47,323 nucleotides of DNA, taken from IMG/VR virus record IMGVR_UViG_3300028908_000003, positions 1-47,323 of that record, one strand, 5' to 3'. Shown one piece after another: positions 7,428 through 47,323 of this stretch. Numbering within the stretch: position 1 is the first letter of the stretch; the number at the start of each line of letters is the position of its first letter. A program made the translations under genes and the position numbers. The notes under the pieces are model-generated. The model was not told the origin of the DNA. It ran no database searches and saw only the letters and a program-made list of their open reading frames with translations. This DNA is from a virus.

Positions 7428-7612
7428 CCTTGAGCCCATTCCCTCCTTTTAAGCCCTTGACGCTCTGCTATCGAGGCAACGCCGCTTCCTCCCTGTTTTC
7501 CCAATACCTTCCACACTCTCCACCTTCCCGTTACCTAACCTTTCCTTAACGGTTCCTTAACTCCTCTCTCCCTGTACCGTACACTCACTCTCCCTCCTTC
7601 TTCCCTTCTTAC

Positions 7613-7764
7613 TAGTACCATCTATCACTTAGAATGGGAAAGAGTACAGTACTTAGACGTTAGTACCATTCTTCTTCTTCGTACTGTACTGGAGTTATAT
7701 ATATATATATATATATTCTAGAGTACAGTACAGGAGAGGGATCCTAACGTGCCGTTAGTACCAT
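7613..7764. repeat. GTAC-motif repeats around a (TA)n tract
   Basis: AGTACAGTAC occurs at 7643-7652 and 7722-7731, and in reverse at 7681-7690. The last two form an inverted repeat around the (TA)n tract at about 7696-7716. TAGTACCAT occurs three times, at 7613-7621, 7661-7669 and 7756-7764; the last two share the longer CGTTAGTACCAT. Short direct and inverted repeats next to an easily melted AT tract are typical of iteron-type origins or multi-site operators. Confidence 0.65.
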
Positions 7765-8233
7765 ACCCCCCCCATAGGGGTCATAGGGTCCATTCGCTTT
7801 GGAGTCCCATGAGAGTAAAGTGACTCTCCTCCGTACGAATTTTTTAGTAATGGGTAGTTTTTAGGCTTAATGGGAGGTCTTAGGGTTTTAAGAGTTAAGA
7901 GACTTTTAAGAATTGGAGGGTACGGGGTTAGAAGGAGCAGGATGGATGGTGAGGAGGTACGGATGGGAACGGGTGGACACCCGGAGATGGGATTGGGACG
8001 GTAGTAGGGGGGAATGTGGGGTTGGAGTGAGGAGAAGGGACGAGGAGGCGTGTGTGACCGGCATATGGGCGCCTGGAGAGGCGTTTGGGGGAGGGGTAGT
8101 GGTTTGGGTAGGGTGGTGATGAACGTGGCTTGTAGGGGTGTTTAAACGGCTCTACGGGGAAATGCCAGATTTTAGGGTTTTGTAAGGTGGTGGGGGAAGA
8201 AAATTTGGTGGGTTGTGGTGCGGGAGGAGGGTG

Positions 8234-8262
8234 TTGACAGAACAGTGACGTTGGAGTAGGAT
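8234..8262 (+). promoter_or_regulatory. Rightward sigma70 promoter
   Basis: TTGACA (perfect -35) at 8234-8239, 17 bases, then TAGGAT at 8257-8262 (four of six). The predicted start is near 8269, about 40 bases before the first rightward gene, whose GGAGG ribosome site is at 8298. The same -10, TAGGAT at the same spacing, recurs in the minus-strand promoter candidate at 20569-20597. Confidence 0.7.
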
Positions 8263-8310
8263 GGGTTGTATGGTGATGAGAGAGGCGCATTTTTTTTGGA
8301 GGCATAGGCG

Positions 8311-8523
8311 ATGGCACTTGAACTTAAGTATTTCGTTCTGAAGCCCCGGTCAAAATACTACGGGGATCCGTGGGGAAGAGCAGCAAGGAAGGCGATGTTT
8401 ACCTTTGCCATCGAGATCGCGGGCGAGGACGAGGAGCTCTACCACGACTTGCTGGCCTGGATCAAACGAGAGGACGCTAGAGAGGAGAGTATGGCAAGGC
8501 TGGACGGTGAGGAGGGAGAATGA
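8311..8523 (+). CDS. First gene of the rightward accessory operon
   Basis: A 70-residue acidic protein: short beta-like start (ALELKYFVLKPRSKYYGDPW), then two helices (RAARKAMFTFAIEIAGED and LYHDLLAWIKRED). It resembles small hypothetical proteins common in phages that begin KYFVLxPRSK, from memory. It is the first gene after the strong promoter at 8234, with GGAGG eight bases before the ATG. It overlaps the next gene by ATGA. Function unknown. Confidence 0.7.
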   Translation: MALELKYFVLKPRSKYYGDPWGRAARKAMFTFAIEIAGEDEELYHDLLAWIKREDAREESMARLDGEEGE

Positions 8524-8888
8524 GAGAAATTTATGTGTTCAAGGTGGTGAGGGTGGAGTCGAAACGCTTGGTTTCGGCGATCTATAAGCCTTGCGATAAC
8601 GAAGACCTAATCACTTACATGGTTGGGGAACCTACGCGACCGCGTCCTGGATGGGGGCCTTTATCGGCGTTTGAGTCTTTGAGGGAGGCTCTCGTTTTCA
8701 GGGAGCGAAATATTTATGCGATTTATCCGAGCGAGATTTGGTTGGCGAGGGCCAAGTCTTCGAGCGAGAAAGCCCTGTGGCAACCGACAAGACCCTTTTA
8801 TACAAAAAGACATCCCAAACTACCGAGCTGGTGTCCGCCAGGTACTGTCCTCTGCGACGAGATTACCCTGATAGCGAGGGTTATGTGA
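8520..8888 (+). CDS. Array family A protein, copy 1
   Basis: A 122-residue protein and the first member of a three-copy family in this operon. Shared landmarks with the next gene: YVFKVVRV at residue 5, SAIYKP, an RPRPGWGPLSAFES block, a W near residue 75 in the middle, and the C-terminal PPGTVLCDEITLIARV. The spacing of these blocks is preserved although overall identity is modest, which indicates an old duplication. It starts as ATGA after GAGGAGGGAGA. Function unknown; position directly behind a strong promoter suggests an early, host-directed role. Confidence 0.75.
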   Translation: MREIYVFKVVRVESKRLVSAIYKPCDNEDLITYMVGEPTRPRPGWGPLSAFESLREALVFRERNIYAIYPSEIWLARAKSSSEKALWQPTRPFYTKRHPKLPSWCPPGTVLCDEITLIARVM

Positions 8889-9289
8889 TGCCGCGGGTGA
8901 TCAAGGTCTTTAAGGTTGTACGTGTTGTGAACGGTGTGTTGTTGTCTGCGATAGCGAAACCTCCGGAAGAGATTGTGTATCGGCCTGGGGAATGGACGGA
9001 GCGGAGGCCGAACAGGAGGAAGTGGGGGCCTTTGGCAGCCTTCGATTCAGAACGAGCTGCCGTTTGGTTTATTCGTGATACTTGGTGGGGTACTCGTGAT
9101 ACTGTCAGTAGCTTTTGGCCGATCCAGGTCTGGGAGGCTGAGGGCGTGAGATCTCGGGCAAGGATCTTACGCAAACCGTCTAGATTTCGCCACAGACGCA
9201 CCTATGAGATAAGAGATTTTCCTAGCGGCACTATTCTATGCGACAGGATCAAGCTGGTGATGCGCGTCTACCCGAAGGAGGGGAGATGA
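8888..9289 (+). CDS. Array family A protein, copy 2
   Basis: A 133-residue paralogue of the preceding gene: KVFKVVRVVNG, SAIAKP, RKWGPLAAFDSERAAVWF, IQVWEAEG and the C-terminal FPSGTILCDRIKLVMRV. It starts as TGATG on the previous stop with GAGGG upstream; a longer start at 8738 would run 150 bases back into copy 1 and is not supported. The C-terminal L-C-D-x-I-x-L-x-x-R-V block is the best diagnostic of the family. It is basic and Trp-rich. Unknown function. Confidence 0.75.
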   Translation: MPRVIKVFKVVRVVNGVLLSAIAKPPEEIVYRPGEWTERRPNRRKWGPLAAFDSERAAVWFIRDTWWGTRDTVSSFWPIQVWEAEGVRSRARILRKPSRFRHRRTYEIRDFPSGTILCDRIKLVMRVYPKEGR

Positions 9290-9516
9290 AGCGGATTGAA
9301 TTTGAGGCCTGGGTTACAAGGGATTATTCGTTCGACGTGACAACATGCCTGCACTTTCGGGAGCCGACCAAGATCCCAAGCAAGCCCCCGCTTGGAGAAT
9401 CGACCTGGGCGTCTGGTAGTCTTGGATTCATATTTGAGCGCTTTGATATTCCTCAGCCTAGACTGGAGCCTGGGCAGAAGGTGAAGGTCAAAGTAACGAT
9501 CGAGGAGGTGATATGA
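9286..9516 (+). CDS. Array family B protein, copy 1
   Basis: A 76-residue protein that opens the second family of the array: a start of the type (F/I)xxWV(A/T)(R/K)D (here FEAWVTRDYSFD), a mid-section with FREPTK, then a C-terminal strand L-x-PG-x-x-V-x-V-K-V-T-I (LEPGQKVKVKVTIEEV). The fold is probably a small beta protein. It resembles short proteins of WVARD...KP type seen in other phages, from memory. The start is ATGA with GGAGGGG. Confidence 0.75.
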   Translation: MKRIEFEAWVTRDYSFDVTTCLHFREPTKIPSKPPLGESTWASGSLGFIFERFDIPQPRLEPGQKVKVKVTIEEVI

Positions 9517-9767
9517 GTTTCACGATGTGGGTAGCTAGAGAATTGTTTCCACGTAAAAACAAGAAGCCTTTTGGGGATTATCACTTTTTCCTGAGAGAAG
9601 ACAGGATACACAAATTATGCTTTAATGATGGAACCGTAGACTTCTATGGGGCAGAATTTACTATCTGCGAGAAGGAAGGATGGAGAATTCTTAAGAAGGA
9701 AGGTCTCATGCTCGATCCTGGAGACGGTCCTGTAAAGATCGAAGTTGCCATAAGGAGGGTAGAATGA
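9513..9767 (+). CDS. Array family B protein, copy 2
   Basis: An 84-residue paralogue: FTMWVARELF at the start, FFLRED in the middle, VDFYGAEFTI, and C-terminal LDPGDGPVKIEVAIRRVE. The PGDGP-x-x-IEV-x-I-R-R ending is shared with copies 3, 4 and 5. ATGA overlaps at both ends and GAGGAGG before the start show tight translational coupling. Unknown function. Confidence 0.75.
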   Translation: MSFTMWVARELFPRKNKKPFGDYHFFLREDRIHKLCFNDGTVDFYGAEFTICEKEGWRILKKEGLMLDPGDGPVKIEVAIRRVE

Positions 9768-10045
9768 GCGCTAAGTTATGGATCGCCAGAGAGAGGTATA
9801 TTCCGTGTTATGATACATCAGAGGAAGAAATTCGCCAGTTGAGTGACTACCTCATCTGGAGGAACGAGAATGAAATCGTCAAGAGCAGTTACTGCAACGG
9901 ACATGTCAGGTTCGAGGGGTCCGACTACACACTCGGCTCACGCGTTTGGGAGCCTATCCTCAAAGAGGCGAGTCTTAGCCTTGAACCTGGCGATGGGCCA
10001 GTTCCTATCGAGGTAACGATTAGACGTTTGGACAAGGATGGCTGA
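9764..10045 (+). CDS. Array family B protein, copy 3
   Basis: A 93-residue paralogue: AKLWIARERYIP at the start, an insertion with EEEIRQLSDY, then GHVRFEGSDYTL and C-terminal LEPGDGPVPIEVTIRRLDKDG. It is coupled to copy 2 by ATGA with AGGAGGG upstream. The C-terminal half is more conserved between copies than the middle, as in the rest of the array. Confidence 0.75.
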   Translation: MSAKLWIARERYIPCYDTSEEEIRQLSDYLIWRNENEIVKSSYCNGHVRFEGSDYTLGSRVWEPILKEASLSLEPGDGPVPIEVTIRRLDKDG

Positions 10046-10058
10046 TGGGAGGAAGGAC

Positions 10059-10325
10059 ATGCCAATAGAATTTTGGATTGCTAGAGACAGGTTCTGGGAA
10101 GGCGAGAAATACACGGAAGAGAAGGCTAGCCACGCCTTGAGCATCTTCCTGGACAAAGAAGACGTTATTAAGTGGCAGCAAGGAGGAAAGGTCGCCTTCT
10201 ATGGGTATTGGTTGAAACTCTTCGACGAGAGGGTTGATCAAGTGCTGTCTGGGCTAGGGATCAACCTGGCACCTGGTGAAGGACCTGTGAGTATAGAAGT
10301 CAAGGCTAAAAAGTTAGGTGGATAA
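10059..10325 (+). CDS. Array family B protein, copy 4
   Basis: An 88-residue paralogue: IEFWIARDRFWEGE, IFLDKEDVI, GKVAFYGYWLKL, then LGINLAPGEGPVSIEVKAKKL. The start at 10059 has GGGAGGAAGGAC before it and is preferred over 10038, which lacks a ribosome site. It is closest to copy 5 at 10521: both have (W/V)ARDR, KKED or DKED, and LGI-x-LAPGEGP. Confidence 0.75.
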   Translation: MPIEFWIARDRFWEGEKYTEEKASHALSIFLDKEDVIKWQQGGKVAFYGYWLKLFDERVDQVLSGLGINLAPGEGPVSIEVKAKKLGG

Positions 10326-10328
10326 AAG

Positions 10329-10520
10329 ATGATCGAAGATGACGTGATCAGGTTAATGGGGAAAGACCCGTCCGAATATAATCATTGTGTTTCGTGCCAC
10401 GAGGATTATGCAAATGGAATTCCCATGGGTTTTGTAGAGATCGATGGTGAAGTTGTCGATGTTTGCTGCTACGTAATGACCGATTACGAAAAGTTCTCAA
10501 AACACAATACGGAGAGATAA
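10329..10520 (+). CDS. Small Cys-rich protein inserted in the array
   Basis: A 63-residue protein unrelated to its neighbours. It has C20-V-S-C23-H and a later C46-C47 pair, so it could bind a metal, though the second knuckle is not a standard CxxC. It is acidic and AT-richer than the structural genes. Its position between copies 4 and 5 of family B suggests a later insertion or a cargo gene in a shuffling locus. Confidence 0.65.
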   Translation: MIEDDVIRLMGKDPSEYNHCVSCHEDYANGIPMGFVEIDGEVVDVCCYVMTDYEKFSKHNTER

Positions 10521-10802
10521 ATGGGTGTAAAAATCTGGGTTGCTAGAGACAGGTTTTTTGTGGGGCAAGAAGGGATGGAAAGAAAACCTGATAACTCCGT
10601 TATCTTTTTTTCAAAGAAAGAAGATGCTGTTAAAGAGGATTACGGGGAGAAGGTCGTCTTTCTGGGAGGTTTCATGGAAGTGTCTGGTGATAATGCAGAC
10701 AATATCCTGCGTGACCTTGGGATTAGCTTGGCACCTGGTGAAGGGCCGATCCCGATTGAAATCACGGGGAGGAGGTTAGATTGTGGTGAAGAGGAAAGAT
10801 AA
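10521..10802 (+). CDS. Array family B protein, copy 5
   Basis: A 93-residue paralogue: VKIWVARDRFF, VIFFSKKEDAV, GEKVVFLGGFMEV, then LGISLAPGEGPIPIEITGRRL and an acidic tail. It starts directly after the previous stop (TAA-ATG). Copies 4 and 5 are the most alike pair, consistent with a recent duplication followed by, or preceding, insertion of the Cys-rich gene between them. Confidence 0.75.
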   Translation: MGVKIWVARDRFFVGQEGMERKPDNSVIFFSKKEDAVKEDYGEKVVFLGGFMEVSGDNADNILRDLGISLAPGEGPIPIEITGRRLDCGEEER

Positions 10803-11073
10803 AATAAGAATTGAAAGAACCGTTTGGGTTACAAAGGATGAGGACGAACCTATTTACGAAATTCTGCACTTTTCTAAACCATCCAAGACCGAACCAAGTG
10901 GTCTGTATGACAATGAAAGCAAGATCTGGTGGTCTGATTTATGGATCCGATTGAATTCATATCTCCCTAATTATGTGCCAGTTCTTAAGCCCGGAGAATG
11001 CCGAAAAGCGAAACTCATTATCATAGACGAAACCGATGAAGAGGAAGGTGACTGTGGTGAAGAAGACCTTTGA
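10783..11073 (+). CDS. Array family B protein, copy 6 (divergent, GTG start)
   Basis: A 96-residue, more distant paralogue: IERTVWVTKDED, ILHFSKPSKTEPSG, WSDLWIRL, then VLKPGECRKAKLIIID and a long acidic tail (DETDEEEGDCGEEDL). In its WVT(K/R)D and (S/E)KP or REP features it is closer to copy 1 than to copies 2-5. The start is GTG, in a TGTGGTGAAGA context after GGAGGAGG; the same context recurs at the next gene. Confidence 0.65.
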   Translation: MVKRKDKIRIERTVWVTKDEDEPIYEILHFSKPSKTEPSGLYDNESKIWWSDLWIRLNSYLPNYVPVLKPGECRKAKLIIIDETDEEEGDCGEEDL

Positions 11074-11779
11074 GCCGGTAGAGAACGGCATCAAGGCTTA
11101 CAAGGTGGTCAAGTGCATTCATGGCTACCAGATGTCGGTCTATCTCGGCAAGAGAATCAAGTATTATATCGGAGAGTTCGTTGAGAGGCCTAAGCCAAAA
11201 AATGGGTTTCAGCCTCGGGATGGAAGACCTTACAACGGGCCTTTGGTCGCCTGGAACAACCTGGAAGCCGCAAAGGCCTACCTGCAAACAATGCGTTCGT
11301 GCAAAGCGCAGCTTTGGGAATGCACCATCATCCCCTCCAAAGACCCTTACCCATGGTCCGGTATCTCCAGCGGTGAATTCTACGCCAGGAGATGGCAAAA
11401 AGAATATGACCCGAATGAAGTAATGTGCGATAAAATCAGGCTGGAAAAACTGATCGAGGAGGTAAGTTATATGCCTGAAGGTGCCATGGAAAAAGAAAAG
11501 ATCGGCGGGTGGAGAAAAAATCTACCTGGCAAGCCCCAAAGGACCCTCACGGTCGATGGCTACATCGCCAAGGATTACGGGTTCAAAGGAGCGTTCTTCT
11601 ACGAAGTCGAACCTCATTATGACGCCGTGAACAAGATATTCCATCCGATCATGATGGATAACGGGGAGCCGACCTTCTACTTCCACCTGGACGACACAAT
11701 GACGGAAGAAGTCTTCCGTCTGAAGAGCGGAGATCTGGTTGAGGCGAAGATTACGATCACCATCAAGAAAAGAAAGTAA
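11054..11779 (+). CDS. Fusion of array families A and B
   Basis: A 241-residue protein. Residues about 10-140 repeat the family A landmarks: AYKVVKC, a RPKP block, YNGPLVAWNNLEAAKAYL, a W in the middle, and EVMCDKIRLEKLIEEV. Residues about 165-241 repeat family B: VDGYIAKDYGFKGAFFYEVEP, FYFHLDD, then LKSGDLVEAKITITIKKRK. It closes the array and links the two families. GTG at 11054 is preferred, because the TGTGGTGAAGA context matches the 10783 start and AAGGTGA precedes it; ATG at 11036 is the alternative but lacks a ribosome site. Function unknown. Confidence 0.75.
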   Translation: MVKKTFEPVENGIKAYKVVKCIHGYQMSVYLGKRIKYYIGEFVERPKPKNGFQPRDGRPYNGPLVAWNNLEAAKAYLQTMRSCKAQLWECTIIPSKDPYPWSGISSGEFYARRWQKEYDPNEVMCDKIRLEKLIEEVSYMPEGAMEKEKIGGWRKNLPGKPQRTLTVDGYIAKDYGFKGAFFYEVEPHYDAVNKIFHPIMMDNGEPTFYFHLDDTMTEEVFRLKSGDLVEAKITITIKKRK

Positions 11780-11787
11780 CAGAGGAA

Positions 11788-12123
11788 ATGAGTTTAGACT
11801 ACGGGATTACAGCAAAAAATGATAAGTCTGGAAAGACTAAAAAATTTATGCATGTAGTTGATGAATACTATGCAAGTTTTGAAGATGGTTGGTGCTGGGT
11901 TCTTTATGAAAAAAAACAGGCCAAGTCTGGTAAGGATAAAGGCAAAACAATAATGCAGACTGTCGGATATTGGGGACAGCTTGAGCCTTTGCTTCGGGAA
12001 GCCGCAAGGAAGGTTGGTTACAAAAAGGCTGAAACCTTGGAGGAATATCTCCTCGAGTTTCAGAAGGCCGTGGAAAAGATCCGGGAGAAGTTGCCCGAGA
12101 TTGAGAGAGAAGGAAAGAAATAA
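11788..12123 (+). CDS. Hypothetical protein
   Basis: A 111-residue, Lys/Glu-rich protein. The N-terminal half is beta-like and aromatic (DEYYASFEDGWCWVLYEKK). The C-terminal half is a predicted long helix (TLEEYLLEFQKAVEKIREKL). The gene is AT-richer than the late genes, like the array before it. GAGGAAATG gives a short-spaced ribosome site. No family recognised. Confidence 0.65.
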   Translation: MSLDYGITAKNDKSGKTKKFMHVVDEYYASFEDGWCWVLYEKKQAKSGKDKGKTIMQTVGYWGQLEPLLREAARKVGYKKAETLEEYLLEFQKAVEKIREKLPEIEREGKK

Positions 12124-12222: not shown

Positions 12223-12450
12223 ATGCCAACATCCGTTTTCATCGGCGGGCCAAAAGACGGGCTGGAGGTTGATATTGCAGTCGGCGTGGAATGGAGATTT
12301 CCCCTGCCGGCCGATAACAATCCAGCCAAATGCCCGAAGATGCCACCGCCCAGAGAGAGGTTCTGGGTAGCAAAATATACCTACGACAAAAGAAGGACCA
12401 TGAAAGCAAAAAGGCCGGTCTATGTTTTCGATGGATACGAGGAGATGTAG
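12223..12450 (+). CDS. Small GGPxDG-type hypothetical protein
   Basis: A 75-residue protein starting MPTSVFIGGPKDGLEVDI. Small phage proteins of this type have a GGPxDG motif near the start and a C-terminal Y-x-F-x-GY element; here the end is YVFDGYEEM. The genome holds a second, distant protein of this kind at 19916. The AAAGGAGG ribosome site may be masked by the hairpin at 12194. Function unknown. Confidence 0.65.
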   Translation: MPTSVFIGGPKDGLEVDIAVGVEWRFPLPADNNPAKCPKMPPPRERFWVAKYTYDKRRTMKAKRPVYVFDGYEEM

Positions 12451-12713: not shown

Positions 12714-12903
12714 GTGGAAGTGCGCTGTGTGCGGTAAACCTGTCGGGAAACCTCCTATTATGGAACTATCCTGGCATGATGGGTATAAACTCTGTAGGCT
12801 TGTGTTCTGCGAGAAGTGCAGGATAGAGAACGCCAGATCAGCTATCGCGGCGTTTGCCAAATATATCAAACAAGTTGGAGGTAAAGAGAGGTATCGAAAA
12901 TGA
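12691..12903 (+). CDS. Small zinc-ribbon protein
   Basis: A 70-residue protein with C11-A-V-C14-G and C40-E-K-C43, a clear two-knuckle zinc ribbon, and a basic helical C-terminus (RSAIAAFAKYIKQVGGKE). It overlaps the membrane protein gene before it by 23 bases and the XRE gene after it by ATGA, so it may act together with the regulator. Confidence 0.7.
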   Translation: MKTERKGKWKCAVCGKPVGKPPIMELSWHDGYKLCRLVFCEKCRIENARSAIAAFAKYIKQVGGKERYRK

Positions 12904-13220
12904 CCACAAGCGAAGTTCCTTTGGCCTACGAAGAACTCGGAAAGAGGCTCAAGATCATCCGTCGTCGGCGTAGACTCTCCCAGAAAAGAGTCGCGGAAGC
13001 CCTCGGGTGGAGCCCGTCCAGAATATCAAGATACGAACACGCTAACCGCTGTATTGACCAGGAATCCTTGAACAAGCTGTTCCAAGCCTACGATGTGAAG
13101 GTGAAGGATGTCTTCGTCAATGAGAATGAATTCGTGAGGTTTGCAGACAGCTTGCTGCCGCTGGACTTTCCGATCCTGATCAAAAGCAGAGAGGAGGAAG
13201 AAGATGGCTTGGAAGGATGA
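12900..13220 (+). CDS. XRE-family transcriptional regulator
   Basis: A 106-residue protein with a classical Cro/C1-type helix-turn-helix at residues 13-68: GKRLKIIRRRRRLSQKRVAE, then ALGWSPSRISRYEHANR, with the recognition helix in SPSRISRYE. The C-terminal 35 residues are acidic and may mediate dimerisation. It is the only sequence-specific regulator I recognise in the genome. The perfect dyad at 14505-14526 and the repeats at 7613-7764 are the obvious sites it could bind; neither link is shown by the sequence. Confidence 0.9.
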   Translation: MTTSEVPLAYEELGKRLKIIRRRRRLSQKRVAEALGWSPSRISRYEHANRCIDQESLNKLFQAYDVKVKDVFVNENEFVRFADSLLPLDFPILIKSREEEEDGLEG

Positions 13221-14534: not shown

Positions 14535-15296
14535 ATGGAGATCTTTCTCGCTCCACGTCCTTTAGGCTCAGATAAGAACAAAGGCTCATCTGCTAAAGAC
14601 CCAAGGGTCTCCTTCCCATCACTGAAACCAAACTCCGAAGAGCCGCTCCACCTCTGGCTCCACCCAGGTACCACACTCGAAGAAGTGGACCTCTCGGGCT
14701 GGAAGCATGTCACGGTAATGCCCTGGGTTCCTTCTTTCTTCCACGGAGGTGGGGCCAAGCTGATCCGGGACTGGACCGACGAGGTTAGGGAAAAGTTCGG
14801 TCCGAAGCCTGTGATCTCCGAACTCACCATCCGTGGTTCTGGCTTCACCATCGTGAACGTCGAGATCAAAGGGGATCTCATTACCAAGGAGCAGAAGAGT
14901 AAGGTCTCGGAGAAGGAGGAGGAGCCGGATGAGCCCGTCCTGGTCGTGATCAAGGGCGTGAAGGCGAAGCGGTGGCTCGCAGATGACTGGGAGGTGGTGC
15001 AGGGAACCCTGGATGATGTCGAGATCGACACCGTGGAGATTGCAGCCTCTGAGGCGGCGACCGGCGTGGAGAAGGTCACATTGGTGGAAAACACGGACTT
15101 CTCCGGGAAACCGAAGGGGAACGTGAGGGTCCGCGAGTGGAAGAAGGTGCGCGGTAAGAAGGACAGGAACGGCAAGCCGAAGCCGAAGGAGAGCATCGGT
15201 CTCTTCAGGTTCAAGAGGTTTGATGTGAAGCTGGAGGCGAGCTCAGGAAAACCCTCGGGCGGCAAGTCCAAGGGAATGGATATGTTGGAGGGGTGA
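14535..15296 (+). CDS. Hypothetical protein at the head of the spike module
   Basis: A 253-residue protein. The middle (ELTIRGSGFTIVNVEIKGDL, then DEPVLVVIKGVKAKRWLADD and TVEIAASEAATGVEKVTLVE) alternates strand-forming residues. The C-terminus is a Lys/Gly-rich tail. It begins the rightward run that leads into the beta-helix gene, so a virion or attachment role is plausible. I do not recognise a domain. Confidence 0.6.
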   Translation: MEIFLAPRPLGSDKNKGSSAKDPRVSFPSLKPNSEEPLHLWLHPGTTLEEVDLSGWKHVTVMPWVPSFFHGGGAKLIRDWTDEVREKFGPKPVISELTIRGSGFTIVNVEIKGDLITKEQKSKVSEKEEEPDEPVLVVIKGVKAKRWLADDWEVVQGTLDDVEIDTVEIAASEAATGVEKVTLVENTDFSGKPKGNVRVREWKKVRGKKDRNGKPKPKESIGLFRFKRFDVKLEASSGKPSGGKSKGMDMLEG

Positions 15297-15297
15297 G

Positions 15298-17055
15298 ATG
15301 ACGGACTGGTACGTAGAAGCAGGAGCGACCGGAGGCACCGGCACCCAGATTGCACCGTTCGGGACACTAAGCGAACTACACGCGCACTGGAGCGACAACG
15401 ATAAGGCGTATTTGTCTGGGAGACTACGCGAGACCCTGTCACCAAAGAACGGGACCGTCGTTGACCAGTGGCCCGGGAAACCGGATGCCATCATTGATGG
15501 GAGCGATGTATTTGATACTTGGGTAGGTCCAGACGCTAACGGGGAATACTACACGGATGCATCCGATGACCCGAAAGTGGTTTTCTACGACGATGTGAAG
15601 CTCACAGAAGGGACCGTTGGTTCTCTTGCTTCAGGGGAATGGGGATGGGATAGCGCCAACTCCCGCATCTACATCAAAGACGACCCTACTGGGCATACGG
15701 TGGAGGCAGGCGTTAGGTATCAGTGTGTGAACGTGAGACAGTATGGAGCAACTGTTAGAAACATACAGGCAAGAAGGGGCCGTATATACAATTTTAACGC
15801 AGAGCCGTGGAATGGGTATACAATATCATTTATAGAAACCAAGTCCGTGGATTGCGGAACTTATGGCTATATGCTCTATTGCCATGGACTTGATTATTGT
15901 GGGAATATCATCGCTAAGAACTGCGAGGATTCTGGGTCATATATCTCCTACAGAACCCCGTATTGTGTTGATGGTTCAGTGGTCGTAGAAAATTGCAATT
16001 TTACAAGTAGAGCTAATACTACTATATGGATTCAGCAAAATACAGGAGGGAAGATCACTATAAGAAACGTAACAATTAACAATTATATATCAATAGACTC
16101 GAATTCTGGGTGCTACGTAGAAGTTGACAGGCTTGTAAGCAATTCGCCAGCAAACTTTGGAATTTATGTCAAAGACCAGTCCGGCGGCTACATCAACATT
16201 AAACAGGGCTCCGTGAAGAATTCCAGTTTCTACGGCGTTTACGTCACTAATATGTCTGCTGGGACGTGCATTGTCGACGGCGTGGACGTGGAAGGGGCTG
16301 GGAGCTACGGGATATACTGCACTAACGTCACTGGCGGGAACCTCCAAGTGGTGAGGAATAAGGTGCATGGAGGGGCAGATGACGGAATACGGCTAAATAT
16401 AGATGGCTCCGCTGCAACCAATATCATTGCGTTCAATGTGTCAGCCGGTAATGATCACCATGGAATCACGTTGAGTGGCGGCAATGGTTACAATGTGTAT
16501 AGGAACACTGTTGGAAGTGAAGCACTTGGGTATTACGGCATAAGGGTGTATAATAACTCCGGTGTAAACAGCACGATTCGCGGGAATGTAATGACAGGAG
16601 AGCGGGCCTTCTACTATACATCGGGAGACTCTACATCAGGACTGGATGAGGATAATAACTGTGTTCATAGTCCGATGGACTCAAAATGGATCGACGGCAT
16701 TACATACACCGACTTGGCTTCCTGGCAATCCGCGACCGGCCAGGATGCGCATTCCATCTCTGCGGATCCTAGGTTCAAGGATGCCAGCTCCGGAGATTAC
16801 CAACTTGCCGAGAATTCGCCTTGCATTGACGCTGGGTGTTTGATCGACGGAGCGCCTGAGAAGGACGCGAATTATATGGATGCGATCATGGGGCCAAAGC
16901 CTGATATGGGTGCCTATGAGTTCAATCCTTACCCGTTCGGCGCTCATTCAGCCTCGGCTTCCAGCTTGATGCGCGGCGTTTACAAGCGGTCCAGACCAGA
17001 CTACGACCCGGATGCTGATGCCCACAAAATGATCCAGCGCATAAGAAGAAAGTGA
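15298..17055 (+). CDS. Right-handed beta-helix protein, probable tailspike
   Basis: A 585-residue protein with the make-up of a parallel beta-helix. Residues about 130-440 are a run of short repeats rich in N, G, V, I and C, with turns such as VENCNF, IRNVTI and VDGVDVEG. The C-terminal part has the CIDAG...PDMGAYEFNPYP ending seen in many secreted beta-helix proteins. Trimeric beta-helix spikes bind or cut host surface glycans. There is no obvious virion-anchoring domain at the N-terminus, so it may bind another spike. The region 15700-16700 is visibly AT-richer than its neighbours, consistent with transfer or domain exchange. Ribosome site GGAGGGG. Confidence 0.75.
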   Translation: MTDWYVEAGATGGTGTQIAPFGTLSELHAHWSDNDKAYLSGRLRETLSPKNGTVVDQWPGKPDAIIDGSDVFDTWVGPDANGEYYTDASDDPKVVFYDDVKLTEGTVGSLASGEWGWDSANSRIYIKDDPTGHTVEAGVRYQCVNVRQYGATVRNIQARRGRIYNFNAEPWNGYTISFIETKSVDCGTYGYMLYCHGLDYCGNIIAKNCEDSGSYISYRTPYCVDGSVVVENCNFTSRANTTIWIQQNTGGKITIRNVTINNYISIDSNSGCYVEVDRLVSNSPANFGIYVKDQSGGYINIKQGSVKNSSFYGVYVTNMSAGTCIVDGVDVEGAGSYGIYCTNVTGGNLQVVRNKVHGGADDGIRLNIDGSAATNIIAFNVSAGNDHHGITLSGGNGYNVYRNTVGSEALGYYGIRVYNNSGVNSTIRGNVMTGERAFYYTSGDSTSGLDEDNNCVHSPMDSKWIDGITYTDLASWQSATGQDAHSISADPRFKDASSGDYQLAENSPCIDAGCLIDGAPEKDANYMDAIMGPKPDMGAYEFNPYPFGAHSASASSLMRGVYKRSRPDYDPDADAHKMIQRIRRK

Positions 17056-17061
17056 GGATCC

Positions 17062-19596
17062 ATGCTCTCCAAGTGGACCTTCCGAGTCAAGAACGAGAGC
17101 ACAAAGGCGCGGACCCAGCAGGTAATGCTTCCGATGCCTTTCCCGGACGAACCATGGCCTGGCGGTCGCATTGTTTGCACCAAAGGCCTCGGGTCCACTT
17201 ACGAGATGCCATGGTTCAGGATCGCGGCTTACCACAACCCGTCCAACCCGGAGAAGATCGGAAACCCGCGATTCATTCAGGTCCTAACCCCAGCCGTTAC
17301 TTTTTCGGCCGGGGAGGAAAAGGAGTTTGAACTCCAGATTGGTACCGCAGGCACAAACCCGATCGCAGAGCCAATCAATCCGATCAAGGTTCATGAAGAG
17401 CCGTCCAAAGGAGACATCGTCACTTCGGAGCCAATCGGAACCCAACCCATCATCAAAGAAGGAAATATCCGAAGCAGGTCCACAGGAACGGCCAAGATCT
17501 TCAAGCCCACTCCTGGTGACATCGTAACGAAAGAGCCCATCAAAGGATCTGGGGTGTATGTTGGCGGCAAGGTGCCTGTATGCCATTTCACCGGAGCCGT
17601 CGAATTCGACGAGAACTTTCTTACCGCTCAGTCGTTGGTCCTTTATTTCGATGGGGACTATTACGACATCGGTTACATCGGAACTCCTATGTTTTCGTGG
17701 GGCCAGGGCGGCTTGGTGATGAAGAAGAACGTGACCATCACCAACCGATTCAAAACCGAACTTCACCTGCGCGTCTACACCACCATCATGCCTGACTCGC
17801 CTTTCATCAAGGTGCTTTGCATCCTTGAGAATCAGCCGTATGAACAAATTGCCAAGAGCGGTGACGCGGCTGTTGCTCCGATCTATTGGGGAGAAAGAGG
17901 CGGAAGCGGAGGTGGCGTTGGTTTCCTGTTTTCCAATCCGGCCCTTTTGGTTCGTCGGGATAAACACCCAGGGAACCTTTACCAGACCACTTACAACGGA
18001 GACAAGTATTACGAATGGAGGATCTGGGAAGACCCTTACATTGAGTTCCTCGGAACTTGGCAAGGGAAGGCATGGGAGTTTCTGGTTTATCCCAACCAGA
18101 ACGATGTGAGTTATCTCCAGGTTGTGGATTATGTACGCAACGGGACGGTTCCGAGTGGGGCGAACAGTAAGGTTCTTTCGTGGCTTGCGGAGGACGAAGC
18201 GCCGCTTTGGGCTCTTCCAGACATTGAGACCTTGAGGGAAGCAAAAGCCTGGTGGTTCGGTGGGATCAAAAGCCCGCTGAACCCCGAGGATTGGACCACG
18301 CTCACCAATTTCCGGAACTCCTGGGACAGCGCTTTCAATACTTATTATGGGAAGGATTGGAGTTACTGGGGGGGAGCCGGCCAGAACGAGGCTTTCGGAG
18401 ACGACAAACATTCTGCTACGACTGGAACACCCAGGAATTCCCAAGGCGAACTTTGGGCCATGAGGGCCATCCAGGGGAAGAGGTCTCAATACCTGAAGCT
18501 GACCGTTGAGAGAGCCAGGGCCCAGGTCTTACGACCTTTGGCTCGCTGTTTTATGAGCGTCCTCAGCCAGACATCAAAATTGAAAAATACATATTTCCTT
18601 CAGTTCAAGGTTTACAAGCAGGGACTGGGAGAGCAGTGGGGGTGCTATAAGGAGCATATTTATCGGGTTGGGAAGGCGACGCCAGATCCGCGTGGAGACC
18701 ACAATATGGGGAATGCAGACGTTTATGAGCATCCCCACGGATGGGATCCTGCGAACTTTGGGCACATTGCAGCGGAGATGCTTGCAGATGCCCATATCTT
18801 TACCGCCGATCCATTTTCTTGGGACGAACTGGATTTCTACGGGAAGACCATCAAGTATGCGTGGCCCAACCCGCCAGATGGTGCTTTTGGGGGAGGGACC
18901 AGCTTTGGCCCGGCGAACTGGCCTAGCGAGACAAGAAGGGAAGGCCTTGTGGCCCTTGTGGGAGCCTTGGCTTACCAGGTCACGGGTAACCTGGATCCTT
19001 GGCAACATCTCCACGATAGAGCCAGGATGCTGGAGAGTTTCAGGAAAACCCTGACTGGTTTCCCGGACACTCCTTACCAGCTCGAACATGACAACGAACT
19101 GAACGAGAATTACACAAAGATAGGAACCAAGCTGAAGGCAACCACCCTCTTCCAGTCCGGGCATTATGTTCACGGAATGCTGGCGGTTGGATGGCCCCAG
19201 AATGCCTGGGATCAGATCCTGGGACATTGCTTGCCCTACCATGCTTGGGAGCTGAAGGATTGGGACACTGGGGCTGGCCGGCCGAAAGGACAGCCTGCCT
19301 ATTACTATGAGATCCGCCCGGCATACAACAGTCCTTCCAAGGATCCATCTTCTGGCAAGTGGAAGCCTAGGAGAGAATGGTGGTCCAGGAGCGTCGGGTC
19401 CTTCGGTACCATGGGGATGATCGTCTCGGCCATGAGATATGCCATTGCCACCCATCCCCAAAAAACCATGAGGGCCTTGATTGAGAACAGGTTACGTGAC
19501 ATGCTCGCCTACTACGGCCACGCCTACCAGCCAAATCCCGCATCCACAGGGGATGGGGACAAGTGGTGGGAATGGTGGGACGCAGAGGTGACATGA
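17062..19596 (+). CDS. Polysaccharide lyase- or glycosidase-like protein, probable spike enzyme
   Basis: An 844-residue protein. Residues 1-95 form a beta domain (LSKWTFRVKNES, then FIQVLTPAVTFSAGEEKEFE). Residues 100-175 are a Pro/Ile linker with repeated GDIVT(S/K)EPI units. Residues 175-400 are a beta-sandwich-like region. The C-terminal half, rich in Trp, His and Tyr, looks like an alpha/alpha toroid of the type in polysaccharide lyases (DHNMGNADVYEHPHGWDPAN, then SGHYVHGMLAVGWPQNAWD). The order beta domain, sandwich, toroid recalls exo-rhamnogalacturonan-lyase-like proteins. Such an enzyme next to a beta-helix spike suggests digestion of a capsule or slime layer. The enzyme class is tentative; substrate unknown. 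Confidence 0.5.
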   Translation: MLSKWTFRVKNESTKARTQQVMLPMPFPDEPWPGGRIVCTKGLGSTYEMPWFRIAAYHNPSNPEKIGNPRFIQVLTPAVTFSAGEEKEFELQIGTAGTNPIAEPINPIKVHEEPSKGDIVTSEPIGTQPIIKEGNIRSRSTGTAKIFKPTPGDIVTKEPIKGSGVYVGGKVPVCHFTGAVEFDENFLTAQSLVLYFDGDYYDIGYIGTPMFSWGQGGLVMKKNVTITNRFKTELHLRVYTTIMPDSPFIKVLCILENQPYEQIAKSGDAAVAPIYWGERGGSGGGVGFLFSNPALLVRRDKHPGNLYQTTYNGDKYYEWRIWEDPYIEFLGTWQGKAWEFLVYPNQNDVSYLQVVDYVRNGTVPSGANSKVLSWLAEDEAPLWALPDIETLREAKAWWFGGIKSPLNPEDWTTLTNFRNSWDSAFNTYYGKDWSYWGGAGQNEAFGDDKHSATTGTPRNSQGELWAMRAIQGKRSQYLKLTVERARAQVLRPLARCFMSVLSQTSKLKNTYFLQFKVYKQGLGEQWGCYKEHIYRVGKATPDPRGDHNMGNADVYEHPHGWDPANFGHIAAEMLADAHIFTADPFSWDELDFYGKTIKYAWPNPPDGAFGGGTSFGPANWPSETRREGLVALVGALAYQVTGNLDPWQHLHDRARMLESFRKTLTGFPDTPYQLEHDNELNENYTKIGTKLKATTLFQSGHYVHGMLAVGWPQNAWDQILGHCLPYHAWELKDWDTGAGRPKGQPAYYYEIRPAYNSPSKDPSSGKWKPRREWWSRSVGSFGTMGMIVSAMRYAIATHPQKTMRALIENRLRDMLAYYGHAYQPNPASTGDGDKWWEWWDAEVT

Positions 19597-19919
19597 TGAC
19601 TGTAACGCCGGTGGTACCTGAAGAGGCGATCCGGGAGATCAGGGAGGCAAAGGCCTATACCCAGGCCATCATGAGCGAAGTGGATGGGGACAGCTACGCG
19701 CTGGCCGCTACGCTCCTCTCCGCGATCGATTACAGCCTCTCCATCTTCTGGGAGGCGGCCTACTCCCAGGACAAGGAACTCCTCCTGGAGACCGTCCAGG
19801 CCGCCCTGGATGCGTGCGACCTCATGGGCGAGACCCATGGGCCGGACGTGAGCAAGATCCGCTCTAGACTCGCCTCAGCCCAGGTCAACATCCAGAATTG
19901 GGTGGTGGATGTGATATGA
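19593..19919 (+). CDS. Small helical hypothetical protein
   Basis: A 108-residue protein, nearly all predicted helix (EEAIREIREAKAYTQAIMSE, then YALAATLLSAIDYSLSIFWE). It starts as ATGA on the lyase-like gene's stop. It overlaps the next gene by ATGA. It has weak resemblance in size and helix pattern to the 21530 protein (ADKASLQQKVQAANNYIQGF), which also ends in a helical region. Unknown role, perhaps with the spike. Confidence 0.65.
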   Translation: MMTVTPVVPEEAIREIREAKAYTQAIMSEVDGDSYALAATLLSAIDYSLSIFWEAAYSQDKELLLETVQAALDACDLMGETHGPDVSKIRSRLASAQVNIQNWVVDVI

Positions 19920-20191
19920 AAGGACCCAAGTGGAAAGGTATCCCGTGCCTATTGAAAGGGGGACCCCTCGCAGGCTGGGAAACCGAGGTCTCGGCCCGTA
20001 CAAGGTTCGGCAAGCCTACGGATGAGCCTCCAAACGTGATCCCTATCTTCAGGAAGGGCCGCTATGTGATCAGCGGCAGAGACGGAAAAATGGTCGTTTA
20101 CACCTGGCTGCCAGCTTTGAAACGACCCGCAAAATGGGAGGAGAGAGGGGTTTCAAGGGCGCCGACCGGGCCGGAGGTGTCCAATGTATGA
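19916..20191 (+). CDS. Small GGPxxG-type hypothetical protein
   Basis: A 91-residue protein (MKGPKWKGIPCLLKGGPLAG...) with a GGPLAGWETEV element near the N-terminus and YVISGRDGKMVVYTW in the middle. It is a possible distant relative of the 12223 gene, which has the same layout. It starts as ATGA. It is the last plus-strand gene before the bidirectional-looking terminator at 20213-20257. Confidence 0.6.
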   Translation: MKGPKWKGIPCLLKGGPLAGWETEVSARTRFGKPTDEPPNVIPIFRKGRYVISGRDGKMVVYTWLPALKRPAKWEERGVSRAPTGPEVSNV

Positions 20192-21996: not shown

Positions 21997-22296
21997 ATGG
22001 AACTCAAGACGACGGGGGATTGGTATCTGATCAGGCGAGACGTGGAGGACGAGAGGACGAAAGGGGGCCTTATCCGGCCGGATACTGCAAGACGGCCGCT
22101 TCCAAGGGGGGTCGTGATCCAGGTTGGAGACGAGATTCGAAGGAAGCTAAGCAAAGGGGAGATTGAGGGCCCGCGTGTAGGGGATTATGTGTTCTTTCCT
22201 GACGCCGCAGCATGGGACGTTGAAATTGAAGGAGAGCCTTTAACCGGTGTTCATTACGGGGACATTACGGCCTGGAAAGCTCGCAAAGAAGCATGA
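21997..22296 (+). CDS. GroES-like co-chaperonin
   Basis: A 99-residue protein with the Cpn10 pattern along its length: MELKTTGDWYLIRRDVED (strand 1), TKGGLIRPDTARRPLPRG (the mobile-loop region and following strand), VVIQVGDE, then GPRVGDYVFF and the final strand DITAW. Length matches GroES (about 97). Phage co-chaperonins such as T4 gp31 replace host GroES on the GroEL ring so that the phage capsid protein fits and folds. Its place among the structural genes, six kilobases before the capsid gene, agrees with that role. The ribosome site GGAGG-AAAA-ATG fixes the start. The strand order and TKGG...PDTA motif make this a good call; the client is inferred. Confidence 0.75.
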   Translation: MELKTTGDWYLIRRDVEDERTKGGLIRPDTARRPLPRGVVIQVGDEIRRKLSKGEIEGPRVGDYVFFPDAAAWDVEIEGEPLTGVHYGDITAWKARKEA

Positions 22297-23362
22297 GCTG
22301 AAACTTCGGGCCTATGATGAGAATACCAGGAAGGACCTGATTCGTATTCTTAACTCCCTGGACCATCTACCTGTAGAGGAACAGAACATCCAGGGGTTTG
22401 AAGCTCTCCGTGCGTACTGGCCGGAAGAGGAGGAATGGATCCAGAATTGCCTATGGATTGCAACGAAGAAAAGGGGCGGAAAGCAACTGCTCAGATTCAA
22501 CTCTGTTCAGCAGGAAGTGAGCAAGGCCATCAAGAGAGTTGAGAACGAAGGTCGAGCTGTCCGCCTGATTATCCTCAAGGCCAGACAGATGGGACTTTCC
22601 ACTTACATTCAGTCCAGGTTCTTCACTGCAACCTGCCTGCATGAAGGGGTCCAGGTCTTCTCTGTAGGAAACAAGAAGAGCACCACCCAGAACCTTATGG
22701 GTATGTGCCGGCGGTTCCTTTCCAACCTGATCTTCAAGCCGCCGATGGAAGAAGAAACCAAGCTTAGCCTGGTATTCCAACATGATTCCTCCTTGAAGGT
22801 GGAGACGGCGCGAGCCGGAGAAGAGACGGGAAGGTCCGCTACTGCTCACATGGTTCATTTGTCGGAACTCGCCTTCTACCCGGACCCAGAATCGGCCATG
22901 ACTGCGGTCTTGCAGATCCAGGGAGATGGCCCAGGGACCTGGACGATTGTGGAATCCACGGCAAATGGTGCCGGGAACTACTTCCACCAGATCTGGCTTG
23001 ATGCCGAAGAAGGCAGGTCCGACTTCATCCCCCTATTCTTCCCGTGGTTCAAAGACCCAAGCTACAGGATGGAGATTCCTGATACGCAGAAGATTGTCTT
23101 TGAGAGATCCCTGGATGAAGAGGAAAAGAATCTCCGGGAAAGGTTCAACCTGGAACTGGAACAACTATTCTGGAGGAGATGGATCATCCGGAACAAATGC
23201 CACGGGTCCATTGATGTGTTCCACCAGGAATATCCATCAACTCCTGATGAAGCTTTTTTGCACTCAGGGGCTCCGGTGTTCGATATAAAAAGGCTTACCC
23301 AGTTGGAACAATACACCAGAAGGCCAAAAAGGTATGTTCTTGGGATGAAGGATAGTCCATGA
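22247..23362 (+). CDS. Terminase large subunit, ATPase half (split gene)
   Basis: A 371-residue protein holding the packaging ATPase domain. The Walker A-like motif is K111-ARQMGLST119, the Walker B region is HMVHLSELAFY at 201-211 (E207 catalytic, with S where Asp is usual) and the coupling motif is VESTANGAGNYF at 235-246. The frame ends at 23362 after DEAFLHSGAPVF, just where other large subunits pass into the nuclease domain. The nuclease is encoded separately at 23516, in the same frame, with a small ORF between. The protein would power DNA translocation into the portal. The GTG start lies in the co-chaperonin gene and has a poor ribosome site, so the exact N-terminus is uncertain. Confidence 0.85.
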   Translation: MFITGTLRPGKLAKKHELKLRAYDENTRKDLIRILNSLDHLPVEEQNIQGFEALRAYWPEEEEWIQNCLWIATKKRGGKQLLRFNSVQQEVSKAIKRVENEGRAVRLIILKARQMGLSTYIQSRFFTATCLHEGVQVFSVGNKKSTTQNLMGMCRRFLSNLIFKPPMEEETKLSLVFQHDSSLKVETARAGEETGRSATAHMVHLSELAFYPDPESAMTAVLQIQGDGPGTWTIVESTANGAGNYFHQIWLDAEEGRSDFIPLFFPWFKDPSYRMEIPDTQKIVFERSLDEEEKNLRERFNLELEQLFWRRWIIRNKCHGSIDVFHQEYPSTPDEAFLHSGAPVFDIKRLTQLEQYTRRPKRYVLGMKDSP

Positions 23363-23514
23363 GAAAGATAATCGTCCGCAGTAGAGCCAGTCTCAGGCCC
23401 AAATCCTTCAAGGAATTCTTGAAGGACATGAAGATCAAGTTGGTGGATGACCAGACGGTAAAGCTTTACCTGGAGTATATCATCCAGCATGAAGGTTTGA
23501 AGAAGTTCTTGTAA
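23359..23514 (+). CDS. 51-residue ORF between the two terminase halves
   Basis: A basic 51-residue protein beginning MRKIIVRSRASLRPKSFKEF, with a second helix VKLYLEYIIQHEGLKKFL at the end. It starts as ATGA on the ATPase stop and ends one base before the nuclease ATG, so it is coupled to both. It carries no homing-endonuclease motif and is not part of any terminase domain I know. It may help the two halves assemble, or be an unrelated insertion. Confidence 0.6.
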   Translation: MRKIIVRSRASLRPKSFKEFLKDMKIKLVDDQTVKLYLEYIIQHEGLKKFL

Positions 23515-23515
23515 G

Positions 23516-24268
23516 ATGGAAATCACGGCAATCGAGGCAGAGAATGGTCCGGTAAGAGTTTGGGAAGAACCCAAACCGAACATGGACTATGTAATCGGTG
23601 CCGATATTGCTGAAGGGAAAGTCTCAAAGGACATCCATGATCCTACCGGGAACAAGAGGGACTGGTCTGTTGCTTTCGTTTTGAAAGTGAAAGACGCTTC
23701 TATCGTCGCACAATACAAAAGCCAGGTAGATTCTGCGACTCTTGCCGTGGACCTATTCATGCTTGGGGCATGGTATAACTGGGCTCTCCTTGCTCCCGAG
23801 ACCAACTCAATGGGGATTGGCGTGGTTCACATGCTTTCCCAGGCCGGCTATCCAAACCTATATCAACCAAAGGTTGGTCCGTTCCAGGCAAACACAGGGA
23901 TGGCGGATTACCTTGGTGTTAGGGCTATGGGATGGGTGACGACAAAGGCAACCAAGCCCATCCTTGTGGCTGCGATCCATGAAGCCTTGGCGAACGGCAA
24001 CAGGATCCCGAGCGTGTCTCTCATTCGAGAACTCAAAACCATCGAATTCGACAGTAACGGGAGGATTGGAGCCCCTCAAGGAGGCCACGACGACCAGATG
24101 ATTGCCTATGGGATTGCGCTTGTGGTGCTCCAGGATTTCCTCGGTGGACGAGCTGGGAACGCAGATTTCAAACAAAACCTCCCAGATGAGGACGCTAGAA
24201 TTTGGCGATTGGTGAAGGAGGAGGATGAGAAGATGGCAGTTGAGGAGGAAGAATTTTATGGCTGGTGA
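23516..24268 (+). CDS. Terminase large subunit, nuclease half (split gene)
   Basis: A 250-residue protein with the RNase H-like nuclease domain of large terminases. Acidic motifs: YVIGADIAEG (D30), LLAPETNSMG (E95) and GGHDDQMIAYGIAL (D193, D194). This half would cut concatemeric DNA at the start and end of packaging. It begins with a few residues before the first strand (GPVRVWEEPKPNMDYV), a stretch normally reached after a linker from the ATPase. It has only a weak ribosome site, so translation probably depends on coupling to the 51-residue ORF. The C-terminus is acidic (EEDEKMAVEEEEF). Confidence 0.85.
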   Translation: MEITAIEAENGPVRVWEEPKPNMDYVIGADIAEGKVSKDIHDPTGNKRDWSVAFVLKVKDASIVAQYKSQVDSATLAVDLFMLGAWYNWALLAPETNSMGIGVVHMLSQAGYPNLYQPKVGPFQANTGMADYLGVRAMGWVTTKATKPILVAAIHEALANGNRIPSVSLIRELKTIEFDSNGRIGAPQGGHDDQMIAYGIALVVLQDFLGGRAGNADFKQNLPDEDARIWRLVKEEDEKMAVEEEEFYGW

Positions 24269-46923: not shown

Positions 46924-47292
46924 ATGAAGTATTTCGTGATCGGCTTGGCGTTGCTTTTTCTTGGGATCTTTCTTGGGTCCTGTTCGATTCATGTTCCTCC
47001 GGAGGCCAGGAAGAAACTGGATGCTCTCCAGCAGGAGGCTCTTTTCGTCTACAAGAAGATCAATTCCGGGGAGTTGACGGTGGCCGAGGCCCAGGAGCAC
47101 CTGGCTAAGATCTATGCTCAGACCATCGAGGTTTTGAAGACCATTCCGCGACCCTTGAACATCAGCGACATTCTGAACTATTTGCTTTACATCCTCTTCG
47201 GAAGCGGCGGAGGGTTGATGGGATACTTCTTCCATACGAGGAGAGTCCTAAAGAAGACGGGTGTCCTTCCTCCCAAGGGAACGCCGGCATGA
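46924..47292 (+). CDS. Lipoprotein with C-terminal membrane helix, u-spanin-like
   Basis: A 122-residue protein. Residues 1-20 are a lipoprotein signal with lipobox L-G-S-C20 and Ser at +2, which favours the outer membrane. Residues 25-78 form a helical periplasmic part (ARKKLDALQQEALFVYKKIN). Residues 82-103 are a Gly-rich membrane segment (LNYLLYILFGSGGGLMGYFF), followed by a basic cytoplasmic tail. Lipid anchor at one end and membrane helix at the other is the plan of unimolecular spanins such as phage T1 gp11, which fuse inner and outer membranes at lysis. It follows two small membrane ORFs. No endolysin is next to it. The ribosome site is GGAGGCGGAG. The gene continues across the circle junction. 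Confidence 0.65.
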   Translation: MKYFVIGLALLFLGIFLGSCSIHVPPEARKKLDALQQEALFVYKKINSGELTVAEAQEHLAKIYAQTIEVLKTIPRPLNISDILNYLLYILFGSGGGLMGYFFHTRRVLKKTGVLPPKGTPA

Positions 47293-47323
47293 GTAGATTC
47301 AAGGTGATCATGAGGGATGGGCT
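47197..47323. repeat. Terminal direct repeat, right copy
   Basis: This is identical to bases 1-127; see that entry. It contains the end of the spanin-like gene and the start of the RusA-like gene. Confidence 0.95.
47289..47323 (+). CDS. Start of the RusA-like gene (duplicate of 93-127)
   Basis: The first codons of the RusA-like gene, MSRFKVIMRDG, seen again because of the circular overlap. The complete gene is at 93-512. Confidence 0.9.
   Translation, partial: MSRFKVIMRDG

What the first reader, a model, noticed from the sequence alone, without database searches (positions are those of the whole stretch)
8520..11779. Tandem array of two shuffled paralogous families, ending in a fusion gene
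Nine consecutive coding units fall into two families. Family A is at 8520, 8888 and the first half of the 11054 gene (FKVV..., GPL-x-A(F/W), CD-x-I-x-L ending). Family B is at 9286, 9513, 9764, 10059, 10521, 10783 and the second half of the 11054 gene (WVARD start, PG(D/E)GP...IEV end). Block spacing is kept while the middles vary. The array is the first big product of the strongest early promoter. Repeated duplication, one A+B fusion and one inserted Cys-rich gene suggest a fast-evolving early set, such as anti-defence or host-takeover proteins that work as modules. The function is inference; the paralogy is directly visible.
Basis: partly seen in the sequence, partly recalled or inferred. 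Interest (0 to 1): 0.8.

Follow-up and report, generated by a model that had tools for sequence, protein, structure and literature searches.

The report
Phage array of duplicated small genes
A previously unclassified bacterial virus carries ten small overlapping genes made largely by old gene duplications, including one gene in which two of the duplicated families are fused; one family probably has the shape of an ADP-ribose-transferring enzyme but lacks that enzyme's usual active-site residues, so its job is unknown and testable.

Summary
Family A (8520, 8888, N-terminal half of the 11054 gene) is certain. The other three (9286, 10783, C-terminal half of 11054) form a second group, here called C, that shares only the W-[VI]-[AT]-[RK]-[DE] start and L-x-PG-[EDQ] end with B; B-C homology is likely but unproven. 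Genes are tightly packed and overlapping. Neighbouring copies are closest; synonymous sites are saturated while replacements are not, so these look like old, constrained duplicates. No relative was found in IMG/VR, GTDB genomes, GenBank phages, Pfam or PHROGs. The predicted A domain (core pLDDT mostly 70-90) matches ADP-ribosyltransferase-fold proteins almost exclusively (2aua, Tpt1, Arr, PARPs; Z up to 5.8) and a DUF7666 viral protein, but has no invariant His and no Arg/His on strand 1: an atypical or inactive ART-like domain. B has a confident model (pLDDT 84) without a fold match. 'Early' expression and anti-defence function are not shown; the array heads the rightward gene run that also carries the virion genes.

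The parts
7440..8310 (.). divergent intergenic region from which the leftward and the rightward gene runs start; short direct repeats and palindromes near 7641-7764; promoter-like TTGACA-17-TAGGAT at 8234-8262
   Evidence: promoter count not above chance
8311..8523 (+). 70-aa gene before the array, unrelated to A, B or C
8520..8888 (+). A1, family A (122 aa)
8888..9289 (+). A2, family A (133 aa), nearest relative A1 (44% identity)
9286..9516 (+).
9513..9767 (+). B2, family B (84 aa)
9764..10045 (+). B3, family B (93 aa), sister of B2
10059..10325 (+). B4, family B (88 aa; alternative ATG at 10038)
10329..10520 (+). Cys-rich 63-aa protein with CxxC and CC, probable zinc ribbon; not related to A, B or C
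   Evidence: (phrog_36524 E 0.0019, PF24071 E 0.01, below cut-off)
10521..10802 (+). B5, family B (93 aa), sister of B4; predicted structure pLDDT 84
10783..11073 (+).
11054..11779 (+). A3-C7 fusion gene (241 aa from GTG 11054; alternative ATG 11036)
11090..11482 (+). A3 domain of the fusion, ART-like fold in the model
11516..11776 (+). C7 domain of the fusion; model unusable here (pLDDT below 50)

Best explanation
A co-translated accessory cassette at the promoter-proximal end of the rightward gene run of an orphan, podovirus-like tailed phage. It grew by old tandem duplications within three small families (A x3, B x4, C x3, with a Cys-rich gene between two B copies); the neighbouring A-then-C order seen at A2-C1 occurs again as one polypeptide in A3-C7. 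Most likely the products are small host-directed proteins, made together, that bind host molecules rather than virion parts. A is best read as an ADP-ribosyltransferase-like (ART-like) domain that has lost or replaced the usual catalytic residues and now binds a ligand or partner; C is its likely partner, because it is fused to A once and follows A once; B copies are divergent variants of a small beta-rich binder. Shown: the paralogy, the order, the gene overlaps, the fusion, the constraint on replacements. Predicted: the A fold, the B fold. Inferred: host-directed role, A-C partnership.
For: Paralogy; sisters are neighbours (B quartet 23|45 in 977 of 1000 bootstraps, A1-A2 44%); overlapping starts and ribosome sites; pN well below saturated pS. 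ART-like fold of A: all of the 50 listed PDB matches of the fusion model are ART-fold proteins of several distinct families or 2aua, itself reported as ART-like (PMC3024214): 2aua Z 5.8, rmsd 4.2, 92 aligned; Tpt1 8tg3 Z 5.1, 3.8, 90; Arr-2 9iba Z 4.5, 4.5, 92. In viral models the third hit is a DUF7666 protein with Foldseek probability 1.00 (E 0.026) and a PARP-catalytic protein also appears. The B model made the same way gave no ART match, so the list is not generic. Phage ARTs are known as host-hijacking proteins and are rare in podoviruses (PMC9503650).
Against: A-domain Z values are below 8, where the tool warns of common arrangements; Foldseek E-values are weak (0.02 viral, 0.95 PDB) and many listed chains are redundant PARPs. 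No sequence-level match to any ART or to DUF7666. No invariant His in A; strand 1 carries Lys in the motif [FY]KVV; the GPL-x-A-[FW] strand has no invariant His, Tyr or Ser, so NAD chemistry of the known kinds is unlikely. Nothing ties the array to a host target, and its transcription time is unknown. The A2-C1 to A3-C7 block link is weak (A3 nearer A2 than A1 in 756 of 1000, C7 undecided).
Confidence: 0.5

Rival explanations
1. The proteins are anti-defence factors: each copy blocks one host defence, and duplication made variants against different targets.
For: Small, clustered, orphan, duplicated proteins near an operon start are typical of phage anti-defence loci; tandem copies can raise counter-defence in T4 (PMC9391042, title and abstract only).
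Against: No match of the members in Pfam or PHROGs; no host known; the padloc library was not run; no sign of rapid change in the pN/pS values.
Confidence: 0.25
2. The A proteins are active, non-canonical ADP-ribosyltransferases acting on host proteins or RNA, with C as targeting domain.
For: ART-like fold list; invariant acidic residues E in YxxGE and D in CD-x-I-x-L; fusion with C.
Against: No invariant His; Lys where Arg or His is expected on strand 1; no acceptor of the H-H-h, H-Y-[EDQ] or R-S-E type (clades as in PMC9503650).
Confidence: 0.12
3. The products are accessory virion proteins, since the array opens the same rightward gene run that holds the beta-helix protein, terminase, portal and capsid.
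For: All genes from 8311 through the portal and capsid lie on the + strand.
Against: Regulatory and nucleic-acid genes lie between the array and the virion genes (HTH at 12900, a replication-initiation-like protein at 11788); small size and no match to structural families.
Confidence: 0.13

Closest known systems
ADP-ribosyltransferase superfamily (Tpt1/KptA, Arr, PARP, the Bacillus protein BC2332 = 2aua)
   Same: Predicted strand-helix order and overall arrangement of the A domain; matches from several distinct ART families
   Different: No sequence similarity; no H-H-h, H-Y-[EDQ] or R-S-E residue pattern; Z below 6; three tandem paralogues, one fused to an unrelated small domain
DUF7666 (PF24703)
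   Same: Third hit among viral models, Foldseek probability 1.00; similar small domain size (95 positions)
   Different: No HMM match in the window at E 1; whether DUF7666 is itself an ART family was not tested
Tandem arrays of small duplicated accessory genes in tailed phages
   Same: Small overlapping genes of unknown function, duplicated in tandem at the head of an operon
   Different: Three families interleaved, with a fusion; no relative in any searched collection

Membership tests
ART superfamily (family A) | ART fold | tested here: inconclusive
   Model pLDDT mostly 70-90 over residues 10-138; best Z 5.8, 5.1, 4.5 (2aua, Tpt1, Arr-2), listed rows all ART-like; Foldseek E weak
ART superfamily (family A) | catalytic residue pattern H-H-h, H-Y-[EDQ] or R-S-E | tested here: not met
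   No invariant His in the three copies; invariant Lys at [FY]-K-V-V on strand 1; invariant Arg residues lie outside strand 1
ART superfamily (family A) | sequence match to an ART family model | tested here: not met
   Pfam, PHROGs and PDB sequence searches empty of ARTs
ART superfamily (family A) | NAD binding or ADP-ribose transfer | not testable with these tools
   needs purified protein
DUF7666 (PF24703) | HMM score over the curated cut-off | tested here: not met
   no match at E 1 in the window
DUF7666 (PF24703) | same fold | tested here: inconclusive
   Foldseek probability 1.00, E 0.026, TM 0.28-0.29
   B2-B5 z 13-39; C1, C6, C7 against B mostly z under 3, best 3.1
   B model good, C7 model pLDDT under 50
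zinc-ribbon protein (10329-10520) | metal-binding Cys pairs and family match | tested here: inconclusive
   CxxC and CC present; PF24071 E 0.01 and phrog_36524 E 0.0019, weak

The most novel reading that the evidence does not exclude
A phage-made multi-part system in which duplicated, non-canonical ART-like proteins (A) work with a small partner domain (C, fused once) and a set of four diverged beta-rich binders (B) to modify or sequester host molecules: a kind of ART-derived toolkit without the known ART active site.
Probability: 0.12. Interest if true: 0.65.

Novelty: new member of a known kind. Interest (0 to 1): 0.38.

Why it matters
Clusters of small duplicated phage proteins without relatives are a large part of phage dark matter. 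Here the internal paralogy gave alignments good enough for a confident B model and a suggestive ART-like reading of A, which turns three unknown families into testable ones. If A is an ART-derived binder, it would be an example of that fold reused without its chemistry in a podovirus, where ARTs are rare.

Tried and rejected
Homologue searches all empty: viral contigs with B, A, C, the 844-aa protein and capsid; genome contigs with A and B; GenBank phages by DNA and by protein at E 1 and 10 (only chance-level hits). Portal-related records from IMG/VR and five podovirus genomes have no A or B; large phages neither (where the window itself served as positive control). PDB sequence searches with the A and B profiles gave only chance hits. 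DUF7666 sequences for a profile-profile test could not be obtained: no match in the records tried. B fold search: best PDB match YEATS Z 2.1, viral E 0.36, not meaningful. Mixed A/C alignment for a better fusion model put C copies on the A half, so it was not used. Paper searches found nothing on such an array. The idea that A and B are one family was rejected. Recent duplication was rejected: nucleotide identities 0.38-0.59, synonymous sites saturated.

Full report
What the window is. The window is a whole IMG/VR virus record of 47,323 bases and its two ends share a direct repeat of 127 bases, so the genome is probably complete. Portal and capsid are about 25% identical to those of Arthrobacter, Microbacterium and Cellulosimicrobium phages and of two podovirus genomes from Manatee Spring; nothing closer was found. 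Two divergent gene runs leave an intergenic region at 7440-8310: leftward with a PD-(D/E)XK nuclease and RecT, rightward with the array, an HTH regulator, a beta-helix protein and then the terminase, portal, capsid and very long virion-sized proteins.

The observation. Against shuffled sequences, A1, A2 and A3 are clearly one family (z 6-28), and B2, B3, B4 and B5 are clearly one family (z 13-39). The remaining three 'B' copies are a separate group: C1 and C6 match each other (z 8-10) and C7 matches their profile (z 4-5), but they match the B core at z 3 or less. Profiles of each group retrieve only their own members from all six frames of the window. What B and C share is the start W-[VI]-[AT]-[RK]-[DE] and the end L-x-[PS]-G-[EDQ]. 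Both together occur in 5 of 924 small ATG ORFs from 568 kb of this and related phages, all five in this array. I regard B-C homology as likely but unproven, because the motif was read off the same sequences.

History. B2-B3 and B4-B5 are sister pairs (quartet support 977 of 1000) and A1-A2 are sisters, so copies arose next to each other. Nucleotide identity is 0.38-0.59; synonymous differences are saturated while replacements are not. These are old duplicates kept under constraint, not a rapidly changing set. The gene order is A1 A2 C1 B2 B3 B4 Cys B5 C6 A3-C7. The A-then-C order of A2 and C1 recurs inside the fusion gene, which suggests that A and C work together; a block duplication fits but is only weakly supported (756 of 1000 for A3 nearer A2 than A1; undecided for C7).

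Structure. The B model (four paralogues) reached mean pLDDT 84, with six strands and one helix, and has no meaningful match among solved or viral structures. The fusion model is good only over its A half (blocks mostly 62-88 over residues 1-100 apart from one loop, and 82-87 over residues 121-140); the C half is below 50 and unusable. Fold comparison of that model returns ART-fold proteins of several distinct families: 2aua (Z 5.8), Tpt1 (5.1), Arr-2 (4.5), many PARPs near 3, and some bacterial toxin ARTs. 2aua is a Bacillus protein that its structural survey compared with the diphtheria-type ART fold (PMC3024214). Among viral models a DUF7666 protein comes third with probability 1.00. The scores are modest, but the consistency, and its absence in the B control, make an ART-like fold the best reading (about 0.6). 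The known ART clades are named after H-H-h, H-Y-[EDQ] and R-S-E residues (PMC9503650). Family A has no invariant His, has Lys on strand 1 and no invariant His, Tyr or Ser on the GPL strand, so it is probably not a usual ART enzyme.

Function. Host-directed binding proteins are the most likely reading (0.5), with anti-defence as one form of it; active non-canonical ARTs (0.12) and virion proteins (0.13) are the rivals. None is shown.

Verdict. A real, old, tandem array of three small orphan families with one fusion; ordinary in kind, unusual in that one family looks like a reworked ART fold. Interest 0.38.

Noticed in passing
22247-24268: The large terminase is split into two genes, ATPase part 22247-23362 and nuclease part 23516-24268, with a small overlapping ORF (about 23358-23513) between them; the podovirus MW202554 shows the same split with a small gene between.
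   Followed up: partly
7641-7764: Divergent intergenic region with direct repeats AGAGTACAGTAC (7641, 7720) and CGTTAGTACCAT (7658, 7753) and an AT-rich palindrome: operator-like; an HTH regulator gene lies at 12900-13220.
   Followed up: no
1-127 and 47197-47323: Direct terminal repeat of 127 bases, though the record is not marked as circular in the tool output.
   Followed up: no
14535-19596: Three proteins ahead of the terminase, 253, 585 (beta-helix, PF13229) and 844 aa; the first and last have no family match.
   Followed up: no
38108-46588: A single gene for a 2,826-aa protein with no meaningful family match.
   Followed up: no
11788-12123: Gene next to the array matches phrog_154, called replication initiation protein, at E 2.3e-7.
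   Followed up: no
12223-12450 and 19898-20191: Two small ORFs that both begin with a GGP-x-x-G stretch; possibly another paralogue pair.
   Followed up: no
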